Part shown: one piece after another, positions 3,022 through 41,124 of the stretch
How the letters are laid out: the number at the start of each line of letters is the position of its first letter
How positions within the stretch are numbered: position 1 is the first letter of the stretch
Assembly: GCA_008933995.1 (NCBI GenBank)
Contig: WARS01000071.1
Coordinates: 1,437,780-1,501,779 of the forward strand
Length of the DNA: 64,000 nucleotides
Direction: 5' to 3'
Source: Datnioides undecimradiatus
Lineage: Eukaryota; Chordata; Actinopteri; Lobotiformes; Datnioididae
Notes under the pieces: generated by a model
Seen by the model: only the letters and a program-made list of their open reading frames with translations
What the model was told of the DNA's origin: nothing
Database searches by the model: none
Translations under genes and position numbers: made by a program

Positions 3022-3133
3022 CTTTGCTGTCCTGCCCCGTGGTGCTGATGTGCATCCTCTTCTGACACTCTCCGCAGCTCATCAGGAAGCGAGTCACCGC
3101 CTCTCGGGGCAGGAAGGCGTACGTCTCTGCTAT
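3022..3133 (-). CDS. nol4l: nol4l internal exon B (zinc-finger-like Cys motif segment)
   Basis: This is an internal coding exon of a nucleolar protein 4 family gene, read on the minus strand. The exon is 112 nt, 37 codons plus one base, and starts in phase 0 with IAETYAF. It contains LPREAVTRFLMSCGECQKR, a signature that I recognise as highly conserved in NOL4 and NOL4L proteins. The acceptor has a long pyrimidine tract ending in cag, and the donor is AAAG|gtacgg. The family is vertebrate, nuclear/nucleolar and poorly characterised; molecular function is not established. Exon A lies 1.76 kb upstream and ends in the matching phase, so A and B splice together cleanly. The next family exon, which carries the YNMP..MKHMKLQ segment, was not seen in 1-3000 and should lie beyond the left edge. 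I favour NOL4L over NOL4 on residue similarity from memory; a fish a/b paralogue label cannot be given. Confidence 0.9.
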
Positions 3134-3585
3134 CTGAGAGAGGGAGACAGCGAGAGGGCGAGAATTAACATATAATATTAAACAGCTGATTTAATTCAAC
3201 ACCTTATCATCCAAGTTATGATATGAATGTGATAAAAGTGCAAATATATTATCAAACAGCTTGTTAATGAAGGCTAAATGCATTCAGGCTCTGCACAGCT
3301 TCGTGCATCTTCAGCTACTCTGCAGACAAAGACGCTGAGCTCTTCTCTCACACTTCGTCCAGTTTCAGTTTATCTGTTGTTAAAAAACAACTTTATTGTT
3401 CTGAAGAGAAGGACAGGCTCCTGTTTCCTGCATCAAACGGTCTCAGAGCGTTTAAAGACGCTGGAGACACGACGTCTGTGCGTTTGTGGGTCTGTTTGAA
3501 TGTGAGTGTGCATAATCAAACATTTATTCTGGAGGCACAAAGACACAAATGAAGAGAGGATGGATGGATGGGGGTTGCTGTGCAG

Positions 3586-3588
<3 letters not shown>

Positions 3589-3626
<38 letters not shown>
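3589..3626. repeat. (GT)19 microsatellite
   Basis: Pure dinucleotide array inside the A-B intron of nol4l, preceded by a short TGGA repeat near 3560. Confidence 0.95.
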
Positions 3627-3628
<2 letters not shown>

Positions 3629-3938
3629 GAGGGAGGGGGTAAAGCAAAGGCAAATGTCACTCACAGCCTTTGGAGGCGCTCTGACCTGAAGCTATGTGGC
3701 ATATAGACCAACATAGATGTACATATACTAGATATACGTCTCTATATATGCTACAGCGATGAGGGACAGATGGACAGAGTCTGACGGATCAAACTTAATG
3801 TGCAAAGGTTTAAAGATGTTTAATGAATCCAGAATACAAAGAGCAGCTGAGAGAAAATGTGAAGATGAGTCGTCTGAGCCTCGTCCCGCCGTCATGAGCT
3901 GCACTTCCTCCGCTTCACCAGAAGAGGGCAGTGTCAGC

Positions 3939-4008
3939 AGCTGAGACAGCAGAGCAGCAGCTGAGACAGCAGAGCAGCAGCTGAGACAGCAGAGCAGCAG
4001 CAGCAGCA
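3939..4008. repeat. 20-bp tandem repeat, about 3 copies
   Basis: The unit CAGCTGAGACAGCAGAGCAG is repeated three times back to back and is followed by a short CAG run. It lies in the A-B intron of nol4l. Confidence 0.9.
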
Positions 4009-4889
4009 CAGGACGGTTTGAGCTCCCTCAACTCCAAAACTCACAGTTAGAAGACAAAAGGAACAAAAGTCATCATTTATAATAATTAAAACAGAGCAGC
4101 TCTCTAATTACTGGAAACATGTTCAGGACACAGGGCCACAGGTTTTGTGGTTGGATGGTGGGATAAAGGAAAATGAAAAGAAAGGATAATGTTTGAGGAT
4201 ATTCCATTTTTAACTGTAGGGCACTAATGCGGAGATAACGATTATGTCCTTAATTCATTCATTCATCAATCGTTCGATCAGAAAAGCGTCTCACAGGCTT
4301 TCAGGTTCAGAGGAGCAGCGAATCCTCACAAATCAGAAACAGGATGGAGGGAACGTTTGCTAACTTTGTCAAATGACTTTTAAACACTTGACGATTCTTT
4401 CTGTGTTGATCAGCTGCTTAATTAATCATCTGATCCACCTCGAGAACATGTGACGGCTAAATGGAAGCGTCCGTCGTCCAGCAGGTGGAAACCAGTTTAG
4501 TTTCTGATCCGAAACTGGAACCAGAGCGACGGAGGCTGTTAGAAAACACTTGTTTCGTCAGAGACGGTAAAAGAGGAATGAAGCCCAGAGAGAAGAGGAA
4601 GAGGAAGAGGGAGAGGGAGCGAGGTCGCAGTGTCTTAGGCAACAGATGACACAAGTTATGAAAGACAGATAAGACCGTGTGGGTCAGAGGTTGGAGGCTG
4701 GCGTGAGACGGACACACACACACGAGCAACAGAGGTGGAAACAACAGAAGGGTTCAGATAATTAGATTAAAGTATAAACTACTTCTAAATATAAACAATT
4801 ATAAAGTGATTTGTTAGAGAGAGCAAGTGTTTGACATCAGCTGAGCGTGAAAACAAATGGAGAAAGCAGCAACACGGCGGCGTTCTTAC

Positions 4890-5042
4890 AGCTTTGTAGG
4901 TCTTCTTCTGCCCGGCGTGTTTCGGGGCTTTGCCGGGGTCGGCGCTGATCTCCACATGCATGGCGTAGATGATGTCGAAGAAGTCCTCCACCACTGCCAC
5001 GCGCTTCAGGGACGAGTCGGCGCCCGACACGCTGTCCACGCA
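4890..5042 (-). CDS. nol4l: nol4l internal exon A (conserved N-terminal domain segment)
   Basis: This is an internal coding exon of a nucleolar protein 4 family gene on the minus strand, 153 nt or exactly 51 codons. It starts CVDSVSGADSSLKR and contains VAVVEDFFDIIYAMHVE followed by KHAGQKKTYKA, a segment diagnostic of NOL4/NOL4L. The acceptor is tctctgtttccag|TGC and the donor is GCT|gtaagaa. Both ends are in phase 0, matching the phase-0 start of exon B at 3133. There is no initiator methionine, so the first coding exon is elsewhere and was not found. GC content is clearly higher than in the flanking intron. About 130 bp upstream of the acceptor the intron becomes an 820-bp minisatellite. 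A plus-strand open frame runs across this exon, but it continues into the minisatellite and is a shadow of the minus-strand coding sequence. Confidence 0.92.
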
Positions 5043-5169
5043 CTGGAAACAGAGACAGACTTTACTTCAGAGACAGAGAGACGCACAGGTTGTTCCCCGG
5101 CCGGAGTCAAAGCCGGGACGATGCAACACTCAGATCGCTCTGCAGCACCTGGAACTGGTCTCAGCAAGA

Positions 5170-5990
5170 CCACAGAGTGGTTCACTGACTGGTTCACTGA
5201 CTGGTTCTGTCACAGACTGGTTCACAGACTGGTTCACAGACTGGTTCACAGACTGGTTCACTGACTGGTTCTGTCACAGACTGGTTCACTGACTGGTTCA
5301 CTGACTGGTTCACTGACTGGTTCACTGACTGGTTCTGTCACAGACTGGTTCTGTCACAGACTGGTTCACAGACTGGTTCACAGACTGGTTCACTGACTGG
5401 TTCACTGACTGGTTCTGTCACAGACTGGTTCTGTCAGACTGGTTCACAGACTGGTTCACTGACTGGTTCACTGACTGGTTCACAGACTGGTTCTGTCACA
5501 GACTGGTTCACTGACTGGTTCACTGACTGGTTCTGTCACAGACTGGTTCACAGACTGGTTCTGTCACAGACTGATTCACAGACTGGTTCTGTCACAGACT
5601 GGTTCTGTCACTGACTGGTTCAGTCACAGACTGGTTCACTGACTGGTTCACAGACTGATTCACAGACTGGTTCTGTCACAGACTGGTTCTGTCACAGACT
5701 GGTTCACAGACTGGTTCACAGACTGGTTCTGTCACAGACTGATTCACTGACTGGTTCTGTCACAGACTGGTTCACAGACTGGTTCACAGACTGGTTCACT
5801 GACTGGTTCTGTCACAGACTGGTTCACAGACTGGTTCTGTCACAGACTGATTCACAGACTGGTTCTGTCACAGACTGGTTCTGTCACTGACTGGTTCAGT
5901 CACAGACTGGTTCACTGACTGGTTCACAGACTGATTCTGTCACAGACTGGTTCTGTCACAGACTGGTTCACAGACTGGTTCACAGACGCA
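5170..5990. repeat. Minisatellite of 12- and 16-bp CTGGTT units
   Basis: About 820 bp of tandem units built on GACTGGTTC. Three unit types alternate: CTGGTTCACTGA, CTGGTTCACAGA and the longer CTGGTTCTGTCACAGA, with a few CTGATT variants. A higher-order block starting near 5573 is repeated almost identically from about 5849, a 276-bp shift. The array starts about 130 bp from the acceptor of exon A. Plus-strand translation gives WFTDWFTD-type peptides, which are a repeat artefact. Confidence 0.95.
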
Positions 5991-7180
5991 TTCACCGGAT
6001 CATCAACCAAATCAAATCATTGTGTGAATCATCTGAAGTTATCTATCAAGTGAAAACTCATGATGCGACGACTCGCTGCTGTTTTCTCTGTTTATCGAGC
6101 ATCTAATCAAACAGAACGGCGTGATGATGTCACATGTTTCTGACATTTTACTATCAAAACGATTAAAACAGTAATTAGCAACTTAATAGATAGTGAACTT
6201 GTTCACTGCAGCACTGCATCTGTCCAATCAGAGCTGTCAATCATCCACTGCTGTATTAATAATAATGAATCTCAATGTTCAATAACAGTCAATAACAATG
6301 ATAAATCCTCTGTTTGGTGACTCCAGAGGATCACACACAGAGCTCTTCCTCAGTCGGTTCCTTGATTGGACAGGACCTGACCACGTACCTGTCCCTCAGA
6401 GACATCCAAACACCGATGCAGCAGGTGGGCAGCACACCTGGCTTTTACAGACAGCACTCTGATTGGTTTAAAAACATGATGAGACCATCGGAGCTCTGAC
6501 GCCAGAGTTCACTCAGTTCAGAAAAAATAAAAAGTGATCAGACGGCAGGATGATGAAGCGATTATAGGACACGTCGGGGCATCTTGGGCTTCTTACAAAG
6601 CAGAGATGAAGCTTTTCTGGCTTCAGTTTGAATCTAAACATGAACTCTTCACCTCCAGAGTGTAAATAAATCACTTTCTGTTTGAAAACCAGCAGCAGTG
6701 AGGAAGACGGACGCTGCAGGAACCTCGTCTGAGCTCCCTGAGACTTCCACAGCAGCTGAGATCCATTTACACTTTGCATACTGATTAATTGCTTTTAATT
6801 GCTGCCCATATATAAAAAATCAGAAGATGCATGGAGTGCGAGTGGCGCCAGTGCACGAACGTCCCGCCTGTCGATATTTAAAACGTAATGAAATGTTTCA
6901 GTGTTGCCAACGTCCCAATTTCCTCGGATGTTTAATGGCGTGAAATAAATGAATGATGTACAATTAAACGGCAGAGAGTGAGACAAAGACTCCGACACCG
7001 GGTCTATGTTAACCAAACTTCCCAGAGGATGGAGCGCTCCCTCTGCATCTGTCCCTCACACACACACACACATGCACACACAGGATGTCTTGGGAACGAC
7101 TGGGAACGACCCTTTTTCCCACAGGGCTGTGGGAGTGTGAGGTGTGATTCTGGAAAGAGGGACAAGAAAGGGTGGGAATA
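5991..7180. other. Unique AT-rich intronic/intergenic DNA
   Basis: No coding exon was recognised. The stretch is ordinary AT-rich sequence ending in a short interrupted CA run at 7058-7082. Confidence 0.5.
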
Positions 7181-7188
7181 GTGTGTGT

Positions 7189-7238
<50 letters not shown>
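7181..7238. repeat. (GT)n microsatellite, one interruption
   Basis: About 58 bp of GT broken once near 7189. It is the first arm of a complementary pair with the (CA)n array at 7363-7420. Confidence 0.95.
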
Positions 7239-7241
<3 letters not shown>

Positions 7242-7359
7242 AGGGTGTGTGTTCGAGACAAAGAAACAGAGAGAAAAGGAAGGAGAGAGAGAGACAGACA
7301 GAAGGACTGATGGAGGGAGAAAGAGGGAGAGCTGTGCCAGTGGATTACAACAGGTGGTG

Positions 7360-7362
<3 letters not shown>

Positions 7363-7420
<58 letters not shown>
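7363..7420. repeat. (CA)29 microsatellite
   Basis: A pure 58-bp CA array, reverse-complementary to the GT array 125 bp upstream. Confidence 0.95.
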
Positions 7421-7422
<2 letters not shown>

Positions 7423-7537
7423 TCCCAGCTGCAAACTAGTAGCAGCATGTGGCGAGGCCTGCAACTACCATGGTAACGAACAAGACCTGAGCTGACAGGT
7501 GAGTGTGTGTCTTTGTATACTTTGTGTGTGCGTGTGA

Positions 7538-7541
<4 letters not shown>

Positions 7542-7589
<48 letters not shown>
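7542..7589. repeat. (GA)24 microsatellite
   Basis: A pure polypurine GA array of about 48 bp, a mirror-repeat sequence type that can adopt triplex (H-DNA) structure. Confidence 0.95.
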
Positions 7590-7593
<4 letters not shown>

Positions 7594-7612
7594 AGCCTAT
7601 ATACTGCAACAG

Positions 7613-7791
7613 GTTGTGTGTGTGTGTGTGTGCAGAAAAAGGTTTCTAACAGTGATTGACACAAACACACACACACACACACACACAGACCAGAGTCATT
7701 CACAGAAGGACTGTGCTGCAGCTCTCATTGTGTGCAGAGACAACAGTTTCATGTTGTCTGTTGCTTGGTGTGTGTGTGTGTGTGTGTGTGT
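7613..7791. repeat. Cluster of three short GT/CA arrays
   Basis: GT at 7613-7632, CA at 7665-7687 and GT at 7768-7791 lie within 180 bp, separated by non-repetitive spacers. Confidence 0.9.
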
Positions 7792-8374
7792 AAAGCATTC
7801 TGAACAAAGTCCTGTGGTCTTCAGCTGATCTGTGTTATCTCCATGTCAGCTGTTGGAAACAGGCTCATCACAGCAGAGTGCCTTTAATCACTCACCTCGC
7901 TGCAAAGTCAGCGTTAAAATGTGAATTCCAGCGTAAACGTTCGTTTAATGAGCCGCCATGCTGGTAAAAACATTAATGGGGTCAAAAATCGGACAAAAAC
8001 CTCTGAGAATTGACTAATTATTTCAAAATCTGATCAGCCATGACATCAGAACAACTCCACGACAACCACCACAACATTAGCAATATTTTATATTTGTTTG
8101 TGTGTTTGTTTACATCTGGAGAGGTAAAGCTAACATTAACTCCTTTTAGCTCTGTTTTGGTCTCCACACACTCCTCTTCTTCAAATACAAGTCTCAAACT
8201 GAGTGACGGCGCCACAGTCACATGACACAACCTGTTACATGTGTGTGAACTATCCAGCACAGGAAGTGGGACGCCTGTCTACCTGCCAGTGTAAGAGGAC
8301 CGTGGTGACAGGTGTGCTGATACGTGGAAGGACGAGGGGGGGTTATGGGTGAGCATGGGTATTGGGACAGGTGG

Positions 8375-8378
<4 letters not shown>

Positions 8379-8410
<32 letters not shown>
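8379..8410. repeat. (GT)16 microsatellite
   Basis: Pure GT array in the 7.2-8.9 kb microsatellite cluster. Confidence 0.95.
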
Positions 8411-8413
<3 letters not shown>

Positions 8414-8489
8414 CATTATCCTTAAGAGATGTTCCCAGTGTGGCCTTTACCAGATGTGGAGCATCTAATGAAGCTCATGAACTGAAGAG

Positions 8490-8533
<44 letters not shown>
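8490..8533. repeat. (AC)22 microsatellite
   Basis: Pure 44-bp AC array, complementary to the GT array 80 bp upstream. Confidence 0.95.
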
Positions 8534-8535
<2 letters not shown>

Positions 8536-8735
8536 ACACGATCTCCTGACCCACTGCCGCTCTCCTCCCTGTCGCTCTCTCTCCACCCCTCGGTCTCAGG
8601 GTGCAGGTACTGTAATAAGCGTTGCTATGGTAACCGTGCTGCAGCTTATCACAGAGGGGATGTTTCTAATGTGGCCCATACCCCCCTCCTCCACAAACCA
8701 CCCCATCCCTGATGCCATTATAACTGGCAGGCGAA

Positions 8736-8766
8736 GAGGAGGAGGAGGAGGAGGAGGGGGAGGGTG
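8736..8766. repeat. (GGA)n tract with G-runs
   Basis: Purine-only GGA repeats ending in a run of five G, 45 bp before the CTG tract. Confidence 0.85.
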
Positions 8767-8806
8767 GTGGTGTGAAAGAGGAAAAGAAAGGCAGGCAGCA
8801 GGATGG

Positions 8807-8810
<4 letters not shown>

Positions 8811-8876
<66 letters not shown>
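8811..8876. repeat. Pure (CTG/CAG)22 trinucleotide repeat
   Basis: Sixty-six uninterrupted bases of TGC repeat, 22 units. Frames through it read poly-Leu, poly-Ala or poly-Gln depending on strand and frame. The flanks show no splice sites or coding signal, so I treat it as non-coding. Pure CTG/CAG tracts of this length are prone to length change (established knowledge). Confidence 0.97.
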
Positions 8877-8879
8877 GAG

Positions 8880-10100
8880 AGGGGTGGGAGTGGGAAGGAG
8901 GAGTAAACAGAGGATGGAGGAGAGGAGCCCTCTCTGAGGAGACAAAAGAGGAAACACAGGAGATAAAAAAGGGTGGAGGAAGACGAGGTTGGTGCAGATG
9001 ATGAGGTGAAGCCGGTGAAACTGCACGGGACAGGAAACGCGTTCAGAACAACATGAGTTTGCATTAGTTATAATCAGGAAACGTCCTAAATGTTGTGATG
9101 TTACTCCATAAACAGTCCAGGCTGAGAGGCTCAGGAGGTTCAGTGTTGATGAGTTTCTGTAGCCAGTTTGTTTCTTTGTCAGTGCTAACGCTAAGCTCGA
9201 CTAGCTCTCTTTGTGCCAAACAAACAATAAAAATAACAAAATACAACCAAAAACATGCACATTTGTGTAAATAAAATCATGTTTAGCCTCTCTGAAAAAC
9301 ACCTTAATGATAAATAATGTTTAATTTCCGTTTTTGCATTTTTTGTAAATAAAACCAGAAGCTAAACGATGGTTTTCTCTGTGCAACACATGCAGAGGAG
9401 GTGGAAGGGCTTTTGTCCGCCTCTAGCTTTGCCTGCAGTCGTCCTCGAGGTGTTTACAACCCCAACACCCTCCTTGCAACAAGGCAGGTCAACTTCTGAG
9501 AGGCGACGCTCAGGGCTAAACGGTTCGTGGAGCTGACGGCTCACAGAGACGATGGGAGAGAGGTCGCCGACTGGATCAGACATCCAATGAGAAACACAAG
9601 AATACAGAGTTCTTTCAAACCAGGCGTGCAGGCGTTTGTATCTGCTGGGAGGACGTAACCCTCATTGCCTTTTACACTGCACCCTTTGCATGGAAAGTCA
9701 AAGTCTGTTTAGTACATTGCCATGGTAACGCACTACTTTCTTTAGCAAGGTCGGCAACTGTAACGCAACTCAGGGTAAAACACATTTAACGAGAGGGCGT
9801 TTCTGTTTTTTCATGCCTGAATGAGACATCGACAGCGTCAACGAACTCAGCACTTGTACAAAAGGTTATGATGACATCACTCAGACGTCCGCTGACTGAT
9901 CTGAGTGCAGAGTGTGAGACGGACGCGGCCCGAGCGTGAGTTACACCTCAGTGTTGTATTCGTCCCGCTGCGACACCTCCAACAAGATACTGCTGTTGCT
10001 TTTCTCTCTCGTGTGTGTGTGTTTACAGCGAGCCGGGCCAGCAGTGCCCTTTCCCTCTGCCTGGCACATCACAGGAGGGCCGGGCCGCCACACAACACCG
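8880..10100. other. Non-coding stretch, nothing recognised
   Basis: Contains a purine-rich stretch just after the CTG tract and then mixed sequence. No exon, RNA gene or repeat family was identified. Confidence 0.5.
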
Positions 10101-10105
10101 CTCCA

Positions 10106-10277
10106 GGACACACACACACACACACGGATAAACACACACACACACACACACACAGATAAACACACAAAGAACCGAGAGGCGAGATGGGAGGAGAGGACAT
10201 GTTTGTCCTCCACTGTCTGCTCCCATGCTTGTTGTCCCTGATACTGGGACCGAATGTGACGTAAAACCAGCTCACAC

Positions 10278-10313
<36 letters not shown>

Positions 10314-10430
10314 TCATGCAAACACACACAATATATAACAAGTAATAAAACATCAACATGCAAGAATAAAATGTGCACAAACACACACAGATACAATTAC
10401 ACACACGCACGCGCGCACACACACACCACA

Positions 10431-10468
<38 letters not shown>

Positions 10469-10681
10469 ACCTCCCCCACCTCTCCTCCTTACGGTTGTAG
10501 GGCACATCACTGGCCCGGGACTGTAGCTTATGTGACAGCATTAACCCACACACATAGACACAGACACCACACACACACAGACATACATCTATGTGGGCCA
10601 TGCAGTGGGGGGTGTGTGTGCGCAAGTGTGTGTTCAGGGGACACCTTAAGGCACAGCAGACAGGACAGCACAGCATGCGTC

Positions 10682-10712
<31 letters not shown>

Positions 10713-10900
10713 GCAACCCCCCACTTCCTACTGGCCAAACAGAAGGGTCAAAGTCAGAGAGAGAGAGAGAGAGGGCAGAGCTGTCCATCTGCAGGACACA
10801 CTTGACTGAACATACAAACACACAGAGCTGCATGTATGTGTGTCTCATGAGACTGGACACACACACACATGTCCGTCCTGCGTGTTTGCCTCCACGACAA
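10106..10900. repeat. CA/GT-rich domain with several arrays
   Basis: Separate arrays lie at 10110-10155 (interrupted CA), 10272-10310 (CA), 10400-10465 (CA with CG steps) and 10684-10712 (CA), with short GA at 10757-10773. Spacers are also CA-biased. The many cysteine/valine or threonine/histidine open frames here come from these arrays. Confidence 0.9.
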
Positions 10901-11505
10901 AGACTCGTCCACTGAAACACTGAAGACCGGACTATTTTTAGGCTTTGTTCCCGTCGCCGAGCAGGGAGCGTGGGTGCGTCGCGTGGCGTCTCCCTCTCTC
11001 TCTCGGGGGGTCGGGCTCATTAAAACATATCGGTGTCTCCGCTCACCAGCAGCTGAACCACGACCCATTTTCAGCTCTGGCGGCACAGTTTGAAGACACA
11101 GCCTGGTATTTACCCACATTTCATTCTCCAGCTTGTATCCTCACATCCAGTCAGCTGGTTGCATCTGCACAGATGTGTGTAAACATTTAAATAACTAAAT
11201 ACACACGAGAGTACCTGTGTGGATTCATCCGCCGCTGAAAATAGTCCCCAACTAAAGAACAGCTGTTTGAGGAAATAACATCATTTGTTTAACATCACCG
11301 TTCTCGGTTTGCTCGACGATGAAAAAGAGCAGCAGATTAATCAGCGAGCATCTCGTACATGACATAGAGCTAATTAAATTAATTAACATTCAGTGTGTTT
11401 GATATCAGTGAGTATATTTGATATTATTCACCCAGGGACACTGTTGACAATGAATATTCATGAAGCTGATGTATGAAAATAAGTCTGTGCAGAATAAAAA
11501 TATAA
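10901..11505. other. Non-coding stretch, nothing recognised
   Basis: Moderately GC-rich to about 11100, then AT-rich. No splice-flanked exon or repeat family was identified. Confidence 0.5.
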
Positions 11506-11507
11506 AG

Positions 11508-11978
11508 ATAGAAGGAGAAAGATGGCCGACATGACAGCTGCTCCAGATCGCCCCCTGGTGTCTGGCTGCAGCACAGCTCATAAGCCCCGCCCCCTGGTGT
11601 CTGGCTGCAGCACAGCTCATAAGCCCCGCCCCCTGGTGTCTGGCTGCAGCACAGCTCATAAGCCCCGCCTCCTCCATGTCAGCAGATGGTTCCTCATCTC
11701 AGCTCGTTCTCATCACACTGATGTTTGTTCAACTGATCATTTCTCTGATCAGTTTGGGTTGAATCAGTTATTGATGCTGTGAAAAGGGGGCGTGGTGTCA
11801 CGACTGACAGCTAAAGTGGGTGGGACCTCAATAGCATGGCTGAACACCCCCGAGCACTGCTTCACAGACTCCAAGAGACACCCCCAGAGCAAGATGGCGG
11901 CGCCTGTGGGAATATTTTAACTTCCTGTTTGTCACAGTGCGTGGAAGCGGGACGTGTCGGCCATCTTTGTTTACAGTC
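11508..11978 (-). mobile_element. Short inverted-repeat element (MITE-like) with internal 39-bp minisatellite, copy 1
   Basis: The ends are inverted copies of AAAGATGGCCGACA (11518-11531) and TGTCGGCCATCTTT (11955-11968), with partial similarity extending several bases further out. Between them lie three 39-bp units (about 11552-11668), then sequence found again at 49.5 kb and 57.4 kb (ATCAGAGAAATGATCAGTTG and AACAAACATCAG..TGATGAGAACGAGCTG in the element's forward sense). The length of about 460 bp, terminal inverted repeats and absence of coding potential fit a non-autonomous DNA transposon. The superfamily cannot be assigned. A further copy of the end motif at 12070-12083 may mark a second insertion or a tandem end. 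Confidence 0.7.
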
Positions 11979-14900: not shown

Positions 14901-15010
14901 TCTTACTTGATTGTTTGTGGGTTTATGGTCTCAGTCGCTTGTTCCAAGGCTTCTTCAACACAACACGTGTTCATTTTCTCCAATTTAGAGGAAAAACAAA
15001 TGATAATGTA
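11979..15010. other. Unique non-coding DNA
   Basis: Includes CA-rich scraps at 12596-12640 and 12783-12800, a short (CT)n at 12398-12416, a (CCAT)5 at 14155-14176 and a pyrimidine-rich block at 14150-14410. No exon was supported. An open minus-strand patch at about 14030-14110 lacks a pyrimidine tract and was not accepted. Confidence 0.5.
12070..12083. repeat. Extra copy of the MITE terminal motif
   Basis: TGTCGGCCATCTTT occurs again 115 bp beyond the right end of copy 1, in the same orientation as that end. Confidence 0.6.
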
Positions 15011-15019
15011 TGCTTTAGG

Positions 15020-16115: not shown

Positions 16116-16119
16116 CCCA

Positions 16120-27082: not shown

Positions 27083-27084
<2 letters not shown>

Positions 27085-29102: not shown

Positions 29103-29130
29103 CAATATCCCTAAATTATTGTGAGTAGTG
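29103..29130 (-). repeat. Right terminal inverted repeat of the Tc1-like element
   Basis: On the minus strand it reads CACTACTCACAATAATTTAG.., differing from the left end at two positions. Confidence 0.93.
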
Positions 29131-29132
29131 TA

Positions 29133-29504
29133 TATATCCAGCAGCCTTCAGGTCGGCCATGTTTGTTTCCCGACATCGAACCTTGAGCTCACGTCAGCAG
29201 TAACGTTTCTAACATTATCCAAGTTTCCATCCACATGCAGAGAAAAATGTAACTGAATTTACAGAAAATTTGCCCAAAAAAGCAAATTAATTCATCAATG
29301 ACATGAAAGAAGTTAAACCACTTGAGCTGTGGGTGCATTAAATGTCTGACATGTCTCATTATAATATTCTAACAGCCAATCAGAAGCAAAAACACAAGGA
29401 TTGTTGCTTTGTCCTGTCCTACAGTGACGAGGCGTACAGATGTTTCGGCTGTGTGACACCTGCCTGAGGTGATCAAACAAGGAGTATTGTAAATGTATGT
29501 GGAC
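29133..29504. other. Non-coding stretch, nothing recognised
   Basis: Flank of the Tc1-like element. AT-rich, no exon or repeat family identified. Confidence 0.5.
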
Positions 29505-29605
29505 TGTGCAGCGATTTAGCAGCGATGTGACTCTGCAAACATCCTCAAAAGGCTGCTTTCTTAAACCAATCACTTTATTAAAGAAGAGATTTCACCATCT
29601 GTAAC
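29505..29605 (+). repeat. Dispersed repeat family B, copy without tandem units
   Basis: The order AGCAGCGATGTGACTCTGCAAA, GGCTGCTTTCTTAAACC and ATCACTTTATTAAAGAAGAG matches 51258-51335, where the same sequence runs into a 65-bp tandem array. Here the array is absent. Confidence 0.6.
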
Positions 29606-29609
29606 AGGA

Positions 29610-32200: not shown

Positions 32201-32514
32201 ACACTGTCTCTCTCTCTCTGTCTCTCTCTCCAGTGTAAACAGCCCAATCATCAGATACTAACCAGACTCAACAGACCTGCTGCTGCCACGACACAAACAG
32301 TTTGCCTCTTGTTTAAATCAAGTTATTTGAATATTTCTTTATTTTTTATCTGAACTCGATTATTTAAATTACTCATGTTTCTGCTGGTGTGCAGTTATGT
32401 GTATATATCTATTATCTACTGTGCTGCCAAAACATATGTTATTCAAAATAATTATCAACATAATTGTGATTGTGCTTTGGCAAAACAAGTGAAATGTCAA
32501 TGAGAATAAAACAC

Positions 32515-33056
32515 AGCTGAACAGAGACACAGAGGGAGAGACAGAGAGAGAGACAGAGAGACACAGACAGAGAGACAGAGAGGGAGAGACAGAGAGACAG
32601 AGAGGGAGAGACAGACAGAGAGACAGAGGGAGAGACAGAGAGAGACAGAGACACAGAGAGAGAGACAGAGAGAGAGACAGAGGGAGACAGACAGAGATGC
32701 AGAGAGACAGGCTGAGAAAAACAGACAAAGGGAGTGAGAAAGAGAGAGAGAGATGAACAGACAGACAGAGACAGACAAAGGAGGGGACACACAAATAGAC
32801 AGAGACAGATACAGAGACAGAAGTGGGGGCAGAGAGGCAGACAGACAAAGGGAGTGAGACAGAGAGAGAGACAGACAGACACACACAAAGAAAAGAGAGA
32901 GACAAAGGAAGAGACACACAGAGACAGAAAGAGAGACACAGAGAGACAGACAAGTGATGGAGAAAGACAGGCAGACAGAGACAGAAAGACAGATAGACAG
33001 ACAGAGACAGACAGACAGGGACAGACAGACAGGGACAGACAGACAGACTCAGAGAA
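32515..33056. repeat. GACA/GAGA-rich simple-sequence tract (~540 bp)
   Basis: The plus strand consists almost wholly of A, G and C in GAGACAGAGA and GACAGACA patterns, with few T residues. Both strands are open in several frames, giving serine/leucine/cysteine-rich or arginine/glutamine/threonine-rich peptides, which I regard as artefacts. A related array lies at 56090-56390. Confidence 0.92.
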
Positions 33057-33296
33057 GAAGACCTCTGCTGGACTCCCCTTCCTGACCGCGACGCTCCTAA
33101 TGCTTCACCTGAATCCGAGATGACATGGGACGGGGGTGAAATCAGCCAAGCAGTTGCCATGACAACCGGCACCTCAAACCTCTCTCCTCATCTCCACAGC
33201 AATTCCACACGACATCAACCTGTCTGTTCGGCCAACCTGAGTGGCCTGAGTGGAGCACCACTCTGCAGAGACGATCAGGTTACGGACTGAAGAACG

Positions 33297-33299
<3 letters not shown>

Positions 33300-33349
<50 letters not shown>
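33300..33349. repeat. (CA)25 microsatellite
   Basis: Pure 50-bp CA array. Confidence 0.95.
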
Positions 33350-33351
<2 letters not shown>

Positions 33352-33769
33352 TTTCTCTCTGTTCATTCATATCTTTGAGTCATCCCACTCCAACATGCTC
33401 TGCTGTCAACAAGTGCTCTCTGGTGTGAGAGCACCATCATCACTACGCAGGGCGGCTGCAGACAGATGTAGAGTATTTAATCATTCTGCAGCAAAAGTCA
33501 TGAGGGGAGCTGACCTCAGAGCAGGAAAACCACAGTCATGTCACTAACACACCAATCAACAATTAGAGTTTCTCACTGGTGCTGCAACTAGTGCAGAAAA
33601 GTGAAGGAACTGATTTTAAAAAAGGCAAAAATCTGGATGAAACGATGGGCGAAGAGAGACGTGGACGAGGACTGTCAGCTCTTTCTGCAGCTGCAAAGCC
33701 CAAATCTACTGCAGAGCTGCAGGAAACTATGCTTTTCCTCACTACTCAACCTATCAATTGGTTTTTTAA

Positions 33770-34095
33770 ATAAAAACGTGGTCTATAAAAGATAGAGAAA
33801 GGTAAAAACAGTCTGTCAGGTGACGTTTTCACCAACCAACAGTCCAAAACTCATGCATGCAGCCCAAAGTGCATCACAAAGAAAAACTCAAACACAGAAA
33901 GTAAATAATAAATATATTAAGATTAGTAATCTAATAAAACTCTGCCGGACTGACACAGACACAGAAAGTGGCAGCCTTGCCTGATAAATACTGTGAATAA
34001 TTGATTAAAAGTCACAATTATCGACGATTCACTTTCTGCTGATCCACCGATAAGTTAAACAACTAAAGTCCAACAATAATAGATGATTCTGACAA
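33770..34095 (-). repeat. Abundant teleost interspersed repeat (GATTAAT-type)
   Basis: Contains GGTCTATAAAAGATAGAGAAAGG, then GGTGACGTTTTCACCAACCAACAGTCCAAAACTC, and at the far end AATTGATTAAAAGTCACAATTATCGACGATTC. This combination is typical of a very common fish repeat; the same family appears at 21128 and 38320. The class is uncertain. Confidence 0.55.
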
Positions 34096-34429
34096 AAAAC
34101 CACAAAGTGCTTTACTTGACTTTATGAGTCAAGTGTTTCTGATGCTTGCATGTGTTTTACATTTCATTACTAAACCACAAAGTGAGTAAAGATCAAATTC
34201 AGCATCAGAGCTTCATGTTGAGGATCATCAGCAGCTGAGCTGTTCTGCTCCATTCAGAGGCGTCTGAGGGAGGAAATTCAGTGCAAAACACCTGAAGTGT
34301 GTTGGTTCTCCATCATGCAGAAGCCGAACAGTCGCTGCTTTGACACAATGGAGGAGGTTCAGCTTCATGCACTCACCAAACAGGACATCCAGAGAACGAA
34401 TAGAGCTAAGCAGAGTATCACTGCACAAG

Positions 34430-34605
34430 GTTACTACTCTGACTGCGTGATGTGTTGCTGTGACTCCAGAGTCTCTGCAGAGCATTGAAGCTGAGTCTCT
34501 GCTTTAATACAGTGATCTGCTGCTGTGACTCCAGAGTCTCTGCAGAGCATTGACTGCTTCTGACCTTTGCGGAGTCACATCGCTGCTGAGTCAAAAAATT
34601 GCTAA
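34430..34605 (-). repeat. Dispersed repeat family B with about two 65-bp units
   Basis: On the minus strand this carries TCAATGCTCTGCAGAGACTC and GGAGTCACAGCA units twice, followed (on the plus strand) by TTTGCGGAGTCACATCGCTGCTGAGTC. This is the same unit and flank as the larger array at 51310-51665, inverted. Confidence 0.75.
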
Positions 34606-35055
34606 CAGCGTGTTATAATGACATAATGTACACTGTCTTCATCTGTTGCTGCAGACTGACGCTGTATAGATCCTGTAGATTGCTGTGTATCGTCTTTATG
34701 AAGGTTAATGTTTGCGTTAATGATGCAGGGTGTGTGTCTGTGTGTAGACAGTCAGAGCCCTGAGGAACACCACATCCACTCATGTCCAGTCCAGTTTGTG
34801 ATTCTGCGCCGCGGCGCTGCCATGGTGACGGGAGGGCCAGCATGCATCATCCTGCACCCACCAGGTTGATGATGCATATAACAGCATATTGGCAATTAAA
34901 CCCTGAGCTGTGGGATTATTGATCCTGATTTTAGAGCTTTAATTGACAGATGATCAATCTGTGAATGAATGTTTGCTGTTCTATGTTGTTTATCTCTATT
35001 CCCTTTAATGCAAAGTGCGTGCAGTCATTCATTCACAATGCAGCGTGTAGACATC
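34606..35055. other. Non-coding stretch, nothing firm
   Basis: Mixed sequence with AT-rich, ATTGATCC/TTAATTGACAG-type motifs at 34860-35000. No exon identified. Confidence 0.4.
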
Positions 35056-35059
35056 TTGG

Positions 35060-35245
35060 ATCCCAGTAAAAGGTTTTATTTGGGATTAGCTGCGCACACG
35101 TCTCAGTTTCCCAGATAACAGGAAGATCCCTCATGTTTTTCTGTGACGGAGATAATCCGGCTTATTGTAACTGGGACAATTTATTCAATCTGCCGGCTGA
35201 AGACTTCTGAATAATGCCGTGATAATGATTCGAATCTAAGAGGAG
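35060..35245. other. Candidate conserved non-coding element
   Basis: Non-repetitive block with GGATTAGC, GATAATCCGGCTTATTG and GAATAATGCC motifs resembling homeodomain sites. It is bordered by purine-rich simple sequence. No coding signal. Inference from composition only. Confidence 0.3.
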
Positions 35246-36500
35246 GAGAAATTAAGCAGCGACACGGATGAAAGGGTGGAAAATGGACCCGGAGCCTGGG
35301 ATCTGGCAAGTTGAGTCACTTTAGGGACCTGAGTCTGATCTGCACATGGGGTCGGAGGAAAGGGAGGGAGAGTGGCGAGAGCGAGGGTGTTAAACAATGG
35401 ATGGACGGAGACGGACAGGAGGAGGAGGAGGAGGAGGAGGAGACGAGAGGATGTCGGGATGAGAGTCCACTAATCTGTTTGACCCACTGCCTCCTTCTCT
35501 CCCCCATCTCCTCTCCTCACTCCCCCGTTAGTTTTCCTGGAACATCTGGAATATCAGCGGTCACAGACGATGCCGAGCTCAGCGTGTCAGCAGATCAATA
35601 TATTGGTCCATCTACCCCCCCACACCATTTTGTTCTCCTTGTTTCCACACTCCTCCTCCTCCTCCCTCTCGTCCTTTCCCCATTTCCCTTCCCCTCTCTT
35701 CAGTTTATCCCCTGTGGAGGGGACCTGTAATGTCAGCTCCATCTCCTGACAAGCCCTCTTTATCGCTTCGCCTTTCTCTGCTGCACAAGAGGCTCCGGGA
35801 GGAGGCGGCCTCGGCACTCGGCTGCTCGGCTGCAGCAGACAGGAGCCTCTCAGGCGGGCGGGTCAGTAGCGTGGAGGGGATCTGCTGTGGATGTGTCTCT
35901 GCAGCCTCGGGGGTGAGGAGGGGGATGAGAGGATGCTCGCTGGCCAGGATGGAGAGGTGGTGGAGGGGGCTCTTCTAAAGAGCGCGGCCCCTTGGAGCCA
36001 GAGTGATGTGGAGAGGAGTGGAGTGCACACTCACTCACACACACTCACTCACACACACACCCGCAGACCTCTCAGAGAGCGGAGGAACAGTGGTGAAATG
36101 AGTCTGTTTGCAGTTGCAGGCAGATCTGGTGACCCAGCTCCTGTCCAAGGTCCTGGATCCTGTAGCACTGGCTGAATAAATCCACACTGACAGCTGGAGT
36201 CAAGGTTAACCCGGCTGCAGAGCGCCGCTTTGCCACCAGCTCTTCATTCTGCAGCTGTCGGCTGAAAAACACACATCTCTGACGAGAAAAGGAAGACTCT
36301 CTGAGAGGAGCGCGACGATCGCTCTCACAGCGACGCAGCGGAGAGGCTGCAACATCTGAACTGCAGCTGCTTTACATCAAGACGAAAAGGCACAGAAACA
36401 GACGTTCATGAGCTGCAACGACTGAGGAGACCAGAACAAAAGCTGTGCTTCAAAACGTAAAGCTGCACCGCTCTTCTACTACTGCAGCCAAATCAGTAAA
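35246..36500. other. Non-coding GC- and pyrimidine-rich stretch
   Basis: Contains (GGA)n at 35419-35442, pyrimidine-rich sequence at 35490-35710 and a GC-rich patch at 35780-35980 with several CpGs. Open frames are present on both strands, but I see no family resemblance or convincing splice pair. Confidence 0.45.
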
Positions 36501-36504
36501 GCAG

Positions 36505-36560
36505 GGGGCCCAAACTGGGGTCCGTGGGCTGAAAATGGCCCTAGACAAGGTTAGAGTTTT
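36505..36560 (+). mobile_element. Possible hAT-type element end
   Basis: CAGGGGGCCCAAACTGGGGTCCGTGGGCTG resembles the CAGGGGT(N)CCAAACT..GGCCCGTGGGCC ends of hAT-type non-autonomous elements. No matching opposite end was located. Confidence 0.35.
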
Positions 36561-36950
36561 GAGTTTTCTGGCAAAAAACCAAAATATTACTGAAATAAAT
36601 TGTTAAATGTCTATATAATATTTCTGCTATTTGACTTTTGTGTGAGGTGAAAACGCTCTTTAATTATTTATTTATAAATATTACATATAATGGATGCATA
36701 ATTATCCATTATTTTGCAGAGGTTTGCACAGGAAGTTGAGCAATTAAGAAAACATGGTGCCAGTTTTTGCATCTTAAAACAGAACATATGATAAAAAGTT
36801 AATTACTGTTCGGTTTTGGTCGGGAAATGGAAAACGTTGGTTTCCCAGAAGTAAAAGCTGCAAGTTTCAGTCGTTTGAAGCTGCTCGTGCGTTTCCATCT
36901 CTGCAGGAGATGGTTTGGTTAAGATCAGAAGGTGACCTCAGATTTTATGC

Positions 36951-37174
36951 ATCTTCATCATCGTCATCATCATCTTCATCATCTTCATCATCATCATCAT
37001 CATCTTCATCATCATTATCATCATCATCTTCATCATCGTCATCATCATCATTTTCATCATCATCATCATCATCTTCATCATCGTCATCATCATCTTCATC
37101 ATCGTCATCATCATCATTTTCATCATCATCTTCATCATCTTCATCATCGTCATCATCATCATCTTCATCATCAT
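36951..37174. repeat. (TCA)n tract with TCG and TCT variants (~220 bp)
   Basis: A trinucleotide array, mostly TCATCATCTTCATCATCG-type, open in every frame. It reads poly-Ser/Phe, poly-His/Leu, poly-Met/Lys or poly-Asp/Glu by frame, so the long open frames are compositional. Confidence 0.95.
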
Positions 37175-37860
37175 CTCTGGACTCGGCCGTGAGGTTTTGG
37201 TCTGAGGTTCTCAGCTGAGTGGAGCAGAAAGGAGGAACAGCGCGGTGGTGGTCAGAAGCTCTTAAAAGTGATTTACTAGCTGCTCCTGAGCTGGACACTG
37301 GTGTGTGTGTGTGTGTGTGTGTGTGCGTGTGTGTGTGCGTGCGTGCAGGACCATCTGCTCTGCTCAATTGAGCTGCCTCCTCCAGTTAAATGCCCTGACA
37401 GCCTGCTGGTCAGGAAAACACCCACCTGATATTAACTCTGGGAGTCGTATCAACCTCGAGCTCTCGGAGCAGCAGCAGCTTCCTCGCCGTCGGAGGAAGC
37501 GCGGTCGCTCTCGGCATCGGCAGAAACACTAATAAAAGTTAAAAATACTCCGGCTTTCACATTCCTGAGCGCCGCGCTTCACGCAGGCTTTATTAAGTCT
37601 CATAGCAACAGCAGCAGCCGTGAAGCAGCGCTGCTCTGAAGGAGGCGAGGAAACATGGCCGCCTCACAGAGAGGGCTGCCCGCTTCCCGTCAGCGCAGCT
37701 GAGATATAAGAATCAGACGCAAACACCACACTGAGACAACCATCTCCTGTCCTCTGCAGAGCGATGCACAGATATCTAAACTTCCTGAAAACACAAGATT
37801 TCCTTTAATCTTTGTGTTGAAGCAAGCACAGTTCGTGATTTTGCAGGGATGCAGTCCTGC
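37175..37860. other. Non-coding stretch between two arrays
   Basis: GC-richer at 37430-37700 with some CpGs (for example 37480-37530). I see no exon that I can support. Confidence 0.4.
37303..37346. repeat. (GT)n microsatellite with CG interruptions
   Basis: GT array of about 22 bp followed by interrupted GTGC steps. Confidence 0.9.
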
Positions 37861-38105
37861 CTGCACTGTCCTGCACCGTCCTGCACTGTTCTGTGCCGTC
37901 CTGCGCCACCCTGCACCGTCCTGCACCACCCTGCACTGTTCTGCGCCGTCCTGCGCCGCCCTGCACTGTTCTGCACCGTCCTGCACCGCCCTGCACTGTC
38001 CTGCACTGTCCTGCACCGCCCTGCACCGTCCTGCACCGTCCTGCACCGCCCTGCACCGTCCTGCACCGTCCTGCACTGTTCTGCACCGTCCTGCACCGTC
38101 CTGCG
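37851..38105. repeat. 10-bp minisatellite, 24 units in exact register
   Basis: From 37861 to 38100 there are 24 consecutive 10-bp units with consensus CTGCACCGTC and variation only at a few positions (C/T at position 7, G/A at 8, T/C at 9, C/T at 10). No indel breaks the register. Because 10 is not a multiple of 3, three units make a 10-codon cycle, and several frames on both strands stay open through the array. Confidence 0.97.
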
Positions 38106-38310
38106 TCCACCAGGCAGATGATGCAGAACAACAGCTTATTATCTGTTAGACCCTGACTGACTCGGGTTGAAATCAAGCTTTTCTGTGGCCTGTGTGTGAA
38201 GATGTTGAGTTTGGTGAGGTGCTGAAGGCGCCGAGGGCTGTTTTTTAATTTGTGATTCATCTTAAATTTACGCCATCGTCTGCCATCAGATAAAAGTGTA
38301 TTTTAACTAT
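38106..38310. other. Unique non-coding spacer
   Basis: Nothing recognised. Confidence 0.4.
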
Positions 38311-38314
38311 TTTA

Positions 38315-38535
38315 GGCCTGAAATTAATCCATTAATTTGTTAATTATTATTGATTAATCATCTAATCTATCAAACACCAGACTTCACAGCGATGTCCCGT
38401 CTTTTTACTAAATAATGACATTTTTCATTTTTCAGGCTTCAGTTTCCAACATTTCACTGAGTGAAATCAGAGCTTACATCTTTAGTAAAGAAGAGATTTA
38501 CCTTCAGTGTTGTTTAGAGACACAGTAAATATATT
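38315..38535 (+). repeat. Teleost interspersed repeat related to 51100-51250
   Basis: ATTATTATTGATTAATCATCTAATC is followed by TTCACAGCGATGTCCCGTC, TTTTCAGGCTTCAGTTTCCAACATTTCACTGA and TTTAGTAAAGAAGAGATTTACC. The same order is found at 51105-51335. Confidence 0.6.
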
Positions 38536-38890
38536 ATAATCACCTGAAATGTTTATGTTTATGTACAATAACACCTCCCTGAGAGTTTAAAACAGACAAG
38601 ACTCCGGGGACCCCTGAGTGCGACTCTCACAGATCCATCAGTCAGAGCAGTACCGGGCCCACCGGGTCGACCCCCGGTGTTACACCGCTGAGGCTGGTGA
38701 TGGGAGGAGGCTGCGCTGCCGGGCTGCGTCCTCGCTCTGAGGTCTAACTGAGCCGGAGCGCTGCCTCTCAGCTCCTCTGAGTGTTGTGGCATTTGGACGC
38801 CTACAACCGTCCTCTGGCTTCTATACGAGGTGCAGGGAACACGGTGACCTTTTAATGACAAGGCCTTATACACCATGCCACCTACTGCAG

Positions 38891-38891
<1 letters not shown>

Positions 38892-38940
<49 letters not shown>
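38892..38940. repeat. (CA)24 microsatellite
   Basis: Pure 49-bp CA array. Confidence 0.95.
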
Positions 38941-38942
<2 letters not shown>

Positions 38943-39790
38943 CAGCTGGCCCTCTCCAACCGTCTCATCTCCTGCCAGTTTCTTTCATTCAACCTCTTAC
39001 AGCCTGATCAGATATGCAGCCCGTCACCTCCTGCTGCAGCACTCAAAGCCTCAAAGCAGCGGTGCAAACGTGCTGATGTGCTTTAATGAAGGGTTTCTAT
39101 CAAAGCTACAAACAGCACAAATATATGTTAAAGCAAACAACTCATGATGTGTTATTGTGAGTTATGATTTCATTAGTTTAGCAGATTTAGCTGCATATAA
39201 AATCATTCTGCACATAAATATTTATAATAATTTAAGTTTCTACACAATCGCTGCTTGTTGGAAACATTAATCGGTGAAAGCTGAAGTTTGCTGACGAGCT
39301 CAGTCAGACAGAAACCGTTTCGATCCAGCTGCTGTTTTATTTTATTTTATCTGCAGCTTTTTGAGTGTTTGCAGAAGATAAACAGGTTTTCTTTACCTGT
39401 GACGACAGTTTAACAATAAAGAAGTTGGTGTGTAATCAGAATGAATGCAGCAAAGCAGTAAACTGGTGTAAACCTTCATGTGTGTGAGGATTTAATGTTT
39501 GTCTCTGCATTGTGTTGCAGCAAAATGCAAATCTTTGTATTCCTGGGGTTGACTGAACATCAGTTGAAGTGTTTTGCTATATTTAGAAAACATTTACAGT
39601 CAGACACGCCCCTGCTCTCCTTCAATAAAAGCAGTAACTTTACTTTAGAGACAGATCGGTGAGTGTGTTTGTGTTTATGTGTGGCTTTGGATCCAAACAA
39701 ACAACAACAACAACAACACAAAGACTTGATGGAGATTGGTTGGAGCACTTCCTCCCTCCTGCCACTGAACCGTCAACCCCCACTCACATC
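38941..39790. other. Unique AT-rich non-coding DNA
   Basis: No exon recognised. A small (AAC)n run lies at 39698-39717. Confidence 0.5.

Positions 39791-39791
<1 letters not shown>

Positions 39792-39847
<56 letters not shown>
39792..39847. repeat. (AC)28 microsatellite
   Basis: Pure 56-bp array; a second 26-bp CA array follows at 39902-39927. Confidence 0.95.
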
Positions 39848-39850
<3 letters not shown>

Positions 39851-40248
39851 GTCGCTCAGTTCTGGGTACGGTGCATTACAGTACCATTCATGGCCAAGGC
39901 CTCACACACACACACACACACACACACTTTTTCATATTTTTTACAGCGGCAGGTAATCGCTGTATCTGTACAACATTATGAAACAATACGTCTGTCTTCA
40001 AGGTGAGCGCTCATCACCGCAGGAAGCCTTTCAGCGCAGAGAGAGGGAGCAGAGTGGTGAAGCAGGCAGGAGAGAGGAAGGTGGGAGGAGGAGAGAGAGA
40101 CAAAGAGAAGCAGAGTGACAGCCGAGCGATGAGACGGAGGAAGAGTTAACGACCTCCAGTAACAGAACACGACCGGTTTCATCTCCTCTGACTTGATTTT
40201 TGTGGTTTTGTCAAAGATCAAACTGCTGCAAAGAGCTGAGACACCAGC

Positions 40249-40251
<3 letters not shown>

Positions 40252-40297
<46 letters not shown>
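40252..40297. repeat. (AC)23 microsatellite
   Basis: Pure 46-bp array about 670 bp downstream (in minus-strand sense) of exon X. Confidence 0.95.
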
Positions 40298-40299
<2 letters not shown>

Positions 40300-40970
40300 T
40301 CAGCCTCTCCTGCGCTGTGTGGGAATCCTCAAAATGCACCGATGCTGAGACGCTGACAGCAGAGTGCTCCTGTGAGAGCGTTCACAGAAGCCCAAGCTGC
40401 AGCATTCGATGTATACACACACAGATACTCAAATATAACCACTGCATCGCTCTGACTGTGTCAGATCACGGCGGTCTGACACAGTCCACAGAAACCCCTC
40501 TGCCCTCCACTGTCGCTGTCTGCATCCACCGATGATTCAGCCTCTGCAGACAACGACCCATGTTTCAGGGCTTCGGGTGCAGCCAGGTTGAGTCTTCCCC
40601 TCCGGTGCACGGGTGAACTCCATCTGAACTCACATTTTAACAAAGCTGCATTTTAGACTGATGGATTCTGGGATTGCATTCCCCCTCAATCCCGCCTGCT
40701 CAAACGTGATTGGTCAACACTACACGGACTAAAGCTGGAACACGGTGTAAGACACAGTAACTGATGCATCTCTGCAGAGCTGCGGCGCTGAAGCACTTAA
40801 ATAAAACTCTGACACACAGGCTCACACTCCCTCTGATGTGACGGCGCTGCTCGTAAACACCTGTCCGCCCTGGAGATGATCCAATCTCCAAAACGAAATC
40901 TTCAAACATTGGAGCAGCGACAACGTGACAATGGCGAGCAGATCGGATCGAAGCGGCGCCGCCTCCTTAC

Positions 40971-41124
40971 CGTCATCCTCCTTGCTGTGTGTGTTCTGGG
41001 GACTGTGGCGCATCCTGTCCCCTCGGCTCGCCGGGCTCAGGTCAGACGCTGCTCCCAGATCAGCCGCTAGCCATGTGGGCTCGCTCATGTCTGCCTCCTC
41101 CTCGCTGCTCAGTGAACTGTCATC
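40971..41124 (-). CDS. nol4l: nol4l-like exon X (acidic, MSEPTW segment), out of expected order
   Basis: This is a coding exon on the minus strand, 154 nt or 51 codons plus one base. It starts in phase 0 with DDSSLSSEEEADMSEPTW and ends RMRHSPQNTHSKEDD. The acceptor is tctcttgtgcccag|GAT and the donor is GACG|gtaagga. The acidic stretch, the MS-x-x-TW motif and the RM-x-SPQN-x-H motif match the central part of NOL4-family proteins. The Trp after Thr fits NOL4L better than NOL4. In human NOL4L a short isoform begins at the Met inside this segment, so the same Met here (after EEAD) could be a start in some transcripts (established knowledge, from memory). The oddity is position: in the protein this segment follows exons A and B, but here it is about 36 kb transcriptionally upstream of them. 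It could be a misplaced assembly block, a duplicated exon or part of another gene copy. Confidence 0.85.

What the first reader, a model, noticed from the sequence alone, without database searches (positions are those of the whole stretch)
3022..41124. nol4l exons in non-colinear order on one strand
Exons A (4890-5042), B (3022-3133) and X (40971-41124) all have good splice sites on the minus strand and all match the NOL4/NOL4L family. In the protein, X follows A and B with one short exon between. In the window, X is transcriptionally upstream of A by 36 kb. Candidate explanations are a scrambled contig join, a real intra-gene rearrangement, a duplicated exon X, or two nol4l copies in tandem. 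The absence of the exon normally between B and X, on both strands, argues that the neighbouring exons are outside the window.
Basis: partly seen in the sequence, partly recalled or inferred. Interest (0 to 1): 0.75.

Follow-up and report, generated by a model that had tools for sequence, protein, structure and literature searches.

The report
Misassembled fish nol4lb gene contig
Three exons of an ordinary fish gene (nol4lb) look scrambled, most likely because a 75-kb piece of the genome assembly, lying between two large gaps, was joined wrongly and put in backwards, so this is probably an assembly error and not biology.

Summary
Exons A, B and X are intact, correctly spliced exons of percomorph nol4lb, all on the minus strand, with X transcriptionally upstream of A. 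They lie in a 74,814-base N-free contig between N runs of 23,829 and 37,453 bases. Beyond those gaps the same gene runs on the PLUS strand: exon 1 at window coordinate -25.7 kb, exons D to I at 144-155 kb. So the contig's exons oppose both ends of their gene and are also swapped among themselves. Cutting between A and X and reversing each piece in place restores 1-A-B-(C)-X-D to I. X joins D in frame; X to A would not. Exon C of this copy was not found in the assembly, although the same query finds it in the colinear paralogue nol4la. No second nol4lb copy of A or X was found. The exons show no decay. A contig wrongly joined at a repeat and placed backwards is the best explanation; a high-copy 446-base repeat (30488-30933) is a candidate join site but is unproven. 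KCTD15 in an old zebra finch assembly is a close precedent. Only reads can exclude a real rearrangement. Interest is low.

The parts
3022..3133 (-). nol4lb exon B, 112 nt, starts phase 0, ends phase 1
   Evidence: 97% aa identity to Dicentrarchus P0125 residues 197-233; AG/GT sites
4890..5042 (-). nol4lb exon A, 153 nt, phase 0 at both ends
   Evidence: 96% aa identity to P0125 residues 146-197; AG/GT sites; only other genomic match is nol4la, 87% DNA identity
40971..41124 (-). nol4lb exon X, 154 nt, starts phase 0, ends phase 1
   Evidence: 90% aa identity to P0125 residues 269-320; AG/GT sites; joins exon D in frame as KEDD-EDSSSES; one match in the assembly
1..64000 (.). N-free contig holding A, B and X; it continues to window coordinate 74814, with 23,829 N before it and 37,453 N after it
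30488..30933 (.). 446-base high-copy dispersed repeat R; a 99.55% copy lies inverted at window coordinates 124318-124763 in the right flank. Candidate site of the false X-to-A join (inference, unproven)
   Evidence: 40 of 1435 candidate places scored, 95-100% identity
27597..29137 (+). Tc1/mariner transposon with 36-nt inverted ends, high copy; another possible join site (unproven)
   Evidence: PF01498 and PF13358, inverted ends, 39 other places among the 40 of 301 candidates scored
5171..5987 (.). 817-base degenerate 12-nt tandem array, 128 bases from exon A on its upstream side; another possible join site (unproven)

Best explanation
The exon order is an assembly artefact. The gene is a normal, colinear nol4lb on the plus strand. 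The 74.8-kb contig from its introns contains one false join between exon A (5.0 kb) and exon X (41.0 kb) and was placed between two gaps in the wrong orientation. A single slip could do both: if the join lies at repeat R (30488-30933), the true order would be exon 1 - gap - [112268 to 124317] - R - [30487 to 1, with A and B] - C - [74814 to 30934, with X] - R' - [124764 onward, with D]. R and R' are then direct repeats. Reading straight from 124317 to 124764 skips the loop, and the loop closes X-side to A-side and is opened at C, which gives exactly this contig, with no fixed orientation. Shown: the strand conflict, the gaps, the frames, the copy numbers found, the missing C, the colinear paralogue and the R pair. 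Inferred: that the fault is in the assembly and not in the chromosome, and that R is the site.
For: N runs on both sides. Exon 1 and D-I on plus, A, B and X on minus. Splice phases fit the canonical order and not X to A. C is not found although the same query finds it in nol4la. nol4la in the same genome is colinear, 1 through I, in 18.5 kb without N. 91 of 91 and 114 of 114 proteins holding A, B, C and X have that order. A, B and X differ from Enoplosus at 7 of 139 residues without a stop. Of the repeat pairs of 150 bases or more at 97% or more in the 264 kb (6 printed), R is the only one bracketing X between A and D, and the longest. Other assembly faults: scaffold pairs sharing repeat hits at near-equal coordinates and a last exon split over two frames. 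Precedent: KCTD15, a gap-flanked inverted contig with two exons (PMC9516821, passages). Map- and Hi-C-anchored assemblies often keep misordered and misoriented contigs (PMC6877557, passage).
Against: B to X is free of N, so a false join inside a contig is required. R is a high-copy family (1435 candidate places), so a pair of copies here may be coincidence; at 446 bases it is short for a long-read misjoin. No comparable inverted pair brackets A and B alone (0 at E 1e-5 or better). Each strand switch lies in an interval that contains an N run, but the switch itself is not shown to be in the N run. The frameshifted last exon could be real decay. No reads, Hi-C or optical map could be consulted, and the base rate of inverted contigs in this assembly was not measured.
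Confidence: 0.93

Rival explanations
1. A real, recent rearrangement in this fish: either two adjacent inversions inside nol4lb, or excision of the A-B-C-X segment as a circle and its reinsertion in reverse.
For: The B-to-X stretch has no N. The permuted order (ends of the ancestral segment joined inside, opened in the middle) is the pattern described for circular intermediates (PMC7450558, passages). R and R' could have recombined. The contig ends carry inverted copies of a dispersed repeat, 565-844 and 73491-73804, 77%. The last exon is frameshifted. X has 3 changes from Enoplosus where the eight other species have 0-2.
Against: A, B and X are intact and conserved. Both the long isoform and the short isoform starting in X (516-aa Larimichthys P0205) would be broken. 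N runs lie in both intervals where the strand switches, and C is missing.
Confidence: 0.04
2. A real tandem duplication of the A-X segment, collapsed by the assembler into one rotated contig, so that the X-to-A junction is genuine.
For: A rotated contig with an N-free X-to-A junction and breaks on both sides is what a collapsed tandem repeat would give; unequal crossing-over between R and R' would make one; the gaps hold 61,282 N.
Against: No second nol4lb copy of A or X was found. C is not in the contig, though a whole unit should include it. The contig ends show no overlap with each other or the flanks beyond the 77% repeat and a 29-base match of the left flank elsewhere.
Confidence: 0.02
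3. X belongs to another paralogue or is a duplicated exon.
For: It is far from and out of order with A and B.
Against: X joins nol4lb exon D in frame and is 90% identical to Dicentrarchus nol4lb; nol4la has its own, more diverged X at C496:5406186-5406347.
Confidence: 0.01

Closest known systems
teleost nol4lb (nucleolar protein 4-like b), e.g. Enoplosus P0124, Dicentrarchus P0125
   Same: Exons 1, A, B, X, D-H read intact; composite protein 91% and 90% identical; a short isoform starting in X is annotated in Larimichthys (P0205)
   Different: In this assembly A, B and X oppose the rest, X is out of order, C was not found and the last exon is frameshifted
nol4la in the same genome, C496:5391197-5409663
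   Same: Same exon series, including C and X
   Different: Colinear on one strand in 18.5 kb without N
KCTD15 in the earlier zebra finch assembly (PMC9516821, passages only)
   Same: A gap-flanked contig carrying exons was inverted, so the gene could not be annotated properly
   Different: There the text describes inversion only; here there is also an internal swap
Rearrangement through circular DNA intermediates (PMC7450558, passages only; cattle KIT case seen there as a citation)
   Same: Same rotated order: outer ends joined inside, opened in the middle
   Different: Those are duplications or translocations to other places with reported breakpoints; here the block sits in its own gene between gaps

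Membership tests
nol4lb (NOL4-like b) | Protein closest to annotated nol4l b of percomorphs | tested here: met
   Top of 1340 matches are Enoplosus (91%) and Dicentrarchus nol4l (90%, one record named nol4l b); the second locus matches nol4la records
nol4lb (NOL4-like b) | Conserved exon F segment (MFVRLFVDENLDRMVP...) | tested here: met
   63 of 63 residues identical to each of nine orthologues chosen from the 120 listed; Pfam was not run on exon F
nol4lb (NOL4-like b) | Colinear exons 1-A-B-C-X-D on one strand | tested here: not met
   Strand conflict, X before A, C not found in this assembly; attributed to the assembly, not the gene
Misoriented or mis-joined contig (assembly artefact) | N-flanked block whose exons oppose the same gene on both sides | tested here: met
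   that the switch occurs exactly at the N runs is not shown
Misoriented or mis-joined contig (assembly artefact) | Expected sequence missing at the boundaries | tested here: met
   Exon C not found while the same query finds it in nol4la
Misoriented or mis-joined contig (assembly artefact) | Near-identical repeat at the false join | tested here: inconclusive
   R pair fits but R is high copy, and Tc1 and arrays also lie between A and X
Misoriented or mis-joined contig (assembly artefact) | Reads, Hi-C or optical map contradict the order | not testable with these tools
   No raw data held
Tandem duplication of nol4l | Second copy of A or X nearby | tested here: not met
   a collapsed copy cannot be seen without read depth
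Circular-intermediate rearrangement | Rotated order with joined outer ends | tested here: met
   X before A with opening between B and X, pattern as in PMC7450558 (passages); a mis-joined contig gives the same order
Circular-intermediate rearrangement | Junctions present in the animal's DNA | not testable with these tools
   Needs reads or PCR

The most novel reading that the evidence does not exclude
The order is real. In this fish the A-B-C-X segment of nol4lb was cut out between two copies of a dispersed repeat as a circle, opened at exon C and put back in reverse (or the segment is tandemly duplicated and collapsed in the assembly), breaking both the long and the short isoform, perhaps tolerated because nol4la lies on the same scaffold.
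Probability: 0.06. Interest if true: 0.4.

Novelty: not a real feature. Interest (0 to 1): 0.07.

Why it matters
It matters mainly as a warning: an N-free stretch can still be out of order, and gene predictors run on this assembly may report nol4lb as truncated, split or lost. Studies of exon shuffling, gene loss or inversion that use this assembly should check this contig first. If the order were real, it would be a case of a rotated, reinserted segment inside a conserved gene.

Tried and rejected
Chance similarity: rejected, E 2e-16 to 9e-25. Tandem copies or duplicated X: no second copy found; the DNA search for X did not pick up the more diverged nol4la X, so only close copies are excluded. 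X from nol4la: rejected. Scaffold C496 as a false join of two chromosomes because it carries both nol4la and nol4lb: made unlikely, since both proteins list the same longest-contig length in Dicentrarchus (29885359), Thunnus albacares (36935597), Acanthopagrus latus (31194941), Siniperca (31412928), Mastacembelus (26713207) and Takifugu (17484280). Lengths differ in Gadus, Chanos, Scophthalmus, Larimichthys, Triplophysa dalaica, Salvelinus fontinalis, Cyprinodon variegatus and Gymnodraco; the column is per protein cluster and may mix assemblies. Another copy of the contig ends: only dispersed repeats matched the first 2,900 bases and bases 71000-74000; the last 814 bases were compared only within the 264 kb. 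Placing the false join from intron similarity to nol4la or CpG content gave nothing; the R pair is a candidate only. Self-comparison showed 60 of 224 rows; one search covers all rows at E 1e-5 for the bracketing test. Pfam on 10 of 58 higher-complexity window ORFs put only the two transposon ORFs above cut-off; on exons 1, A, B and X nothing reached cut-off. Rfam, PHROGs, PADLOC and structure tools were not used. Paper searches: (listings only); passages seen in PMC6877557, PMC9516821, PMC8081667, PMC6976628 and PMC7450558.

Full report
What was checked. Exon A (5042-4890), exon B (3133-3022) and exon X (41124-40971) are on the minus strand with AG acceptors and GT donors, and their translations are open. 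They match Dicentrarchus nol4lb at 96%, 97% and 90%.

The window in its genome. The window is C496:1437780-1501779 of a 581-Mb genome held in 497 contigs. That the animal is a percomorph fish rests on its closest protein matches. I fetched 100 kb on each side. The window begins exactly where a run of 23,829 N ends, and the N-free stretch runs to window coordinate 74814, where 37,453 N begin. Such odd gap sizes suggest estimated gaps; that is inference, and I did not establish how the assembly was made.

The rest of the gene. In window coordinates exon 1 lies at -25736 to -25308 on the plus strand. Exons D (144303-144784), E (146814-146999), F (147524-147712), G (151136-151249), H (152003-152234) and the last exon I (about 154925-155161) also lie on plus. 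The exons of the window contig therefore oppose both ends of their own gene. Reversing the contig alone gives X-A-B, still wrong. Cutting between A and X and reversing each piece in place gives the canonical order.

Reading frames. Exon 1 to A and A to B join in phase 0. X starts in phase 0 and ends in phase 1, D starts in phase 1, and X-D reads KEDD-EDSSSES. X to A would be out of frame, and so would B to X without C.

The missing exon and its control. Exon C ([36 protein letters not shown] in P0125) gives no credible match in the 264 kb. The whole-genome search with P0125 (20 matches, 37 of 37 candidates scored) finds it only in a second locus, C496:5391197-5409663. Its protein matches nol4la records best. 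It carries 1-A-B-C-X-D-E-F-G-H-I in order on plus in 18.5 kb without N. So the method finds C where it exists.

Order in other species. Of the 120 proteins listed, 91 carry A, B, C and X by my score cut-off, all in that order; of the 120, 114 carry them, all in that order. The other 29 and 6 lacked at least one segment and were not counted. The lists are the best 120 of 1340 and of 1936 matches.

Copy number and constraint. X matches once; A matches itself and nol4la. A, B and X differ from Enoplosus at 3 of 51, 1 of 37 and 3 of 51 residues, with no stop. X has somewhat more changes from Enoplosus than the eight other species have (3 against 0-2) (nine orthologues chosen from the 120). A gene scrambled long ago should have decayed more.

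A candidate site for the fault. A 446-base repeat R at 30488-30933 has a 99.55% copy, inverted as assembled, at 124318-124763 in the right flank. It is the longest of six printed pairs of at least 150 bases and 97% identity in the 264 kb, and the only one of these that brackets X between A and D; no pair brackets A and B alone. In the corrected order the two copies would be direct repeats. One slip between them would then skip the segment and leave it as a loop with X joined to A through R, opened at C and free to be put back either way round. This explains order, strand, the N-free X-A junction and the missing C at once. Against it, R is a high-copy family: 1435 candidate places, of which 40 were scored at 95-100% identity. 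At roughly one candidate per 400 kb, two copies in this region are not remarkable (my estimate). The Tc1 element (27597-29137) and tandem arrays are other possible sites. I treat R as a lead.

Against my reading. The B-to-X stretch has no N. The repeats found between A and X are 1.5 kb or shorter, short for a long-read misjoin. The last exon is split over two frames in the assembly, which could be poor consensus or decay. The contig ends share an inverted dispersed repeat at 77%. The same rotated order is known from real circular-DNA intermediates (PMC7450558, passages). None of these needs a real rearrangement here, and none excludes one.

Signs of assembly trouble. Scaffold pairs such as C471/C472, C473/C474, C342/C343, C197/C198, C215/C218 and C205/C207 give the same repeat hits at nearly the same coordinates, which looks like retained haplotype duplicates; I did not align them. 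[quoted passage not shown] PMC6877557 (passage) says that anchoring with genetic maps or Hi-C often leaves misordered and misoriented contigs.

Verdict. The scrambled order is most likely an assembly artefact of an ordinary nol4lb gene (0.93); a real rearrangement (0.04) or a collapsed duplication (0.02) needs raw reads to exclude.

Noticed in passing
window coordinates about 154925-155161 (+), right flank: The last exon of nol4lb is split across two reading frames relative to the orthologues printed; the end [20 protein letters not shown] is intact but in another frame. It may be poor local consensus or real decay.
   Followed up: partly
PMC6976628 (passages) puts them in two different conserved gene neighbourhoods.
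   Followed up: partly
whole genome G000: A search with human NOL4 (P0004) gave 14 matches, all in the nol4la and nol4lb loci (20 of 20 candidates scored); no separate NOL4 gene was seen.
   Followed up: no
scaffold pairs C471/C472, C473/C474, C342/C343, C197/C198, C215/C218, C205/C207: The same repeat copies occur at nearly the same coordinates in both members of each pair, as if haplotype duplicates were kept in the assembly.
   Followed up: no
window 27597-29137 (+): Tc1/mariner element with 36-nt inverted ends and a reading frame interrupted by a stop. Of 39 other places scored, 6 match nearly the full length (96-98%) and 33 lack the same stretch of about 300 bases (98% elsewhere).
   Followed up: partly
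window 30488-30933; partial copies at window coordinates 154271-154736: Young high-copy dispersed repeat R (40 of 1435 candidates scored, 95-100%); pieces of it form a tandem array in the last nol4lb intron.
   Followed up: partly
contig coordinates 68901-69700, beyond the window end: CpG-rich stretch (GC 0.57-0.61, observed/expected 1.0-1.3), about 28 kb upstream of X on the minus strand; possibly the promoter of the short isoform that starts in X.
   Followed up: no
window 11546-11829 and 49555-49994; also 133637-133918: A repeat containing a 39-base minisatellite occurs in inverted orientation at the two window sites and again in the right flank.
   Followed up: no
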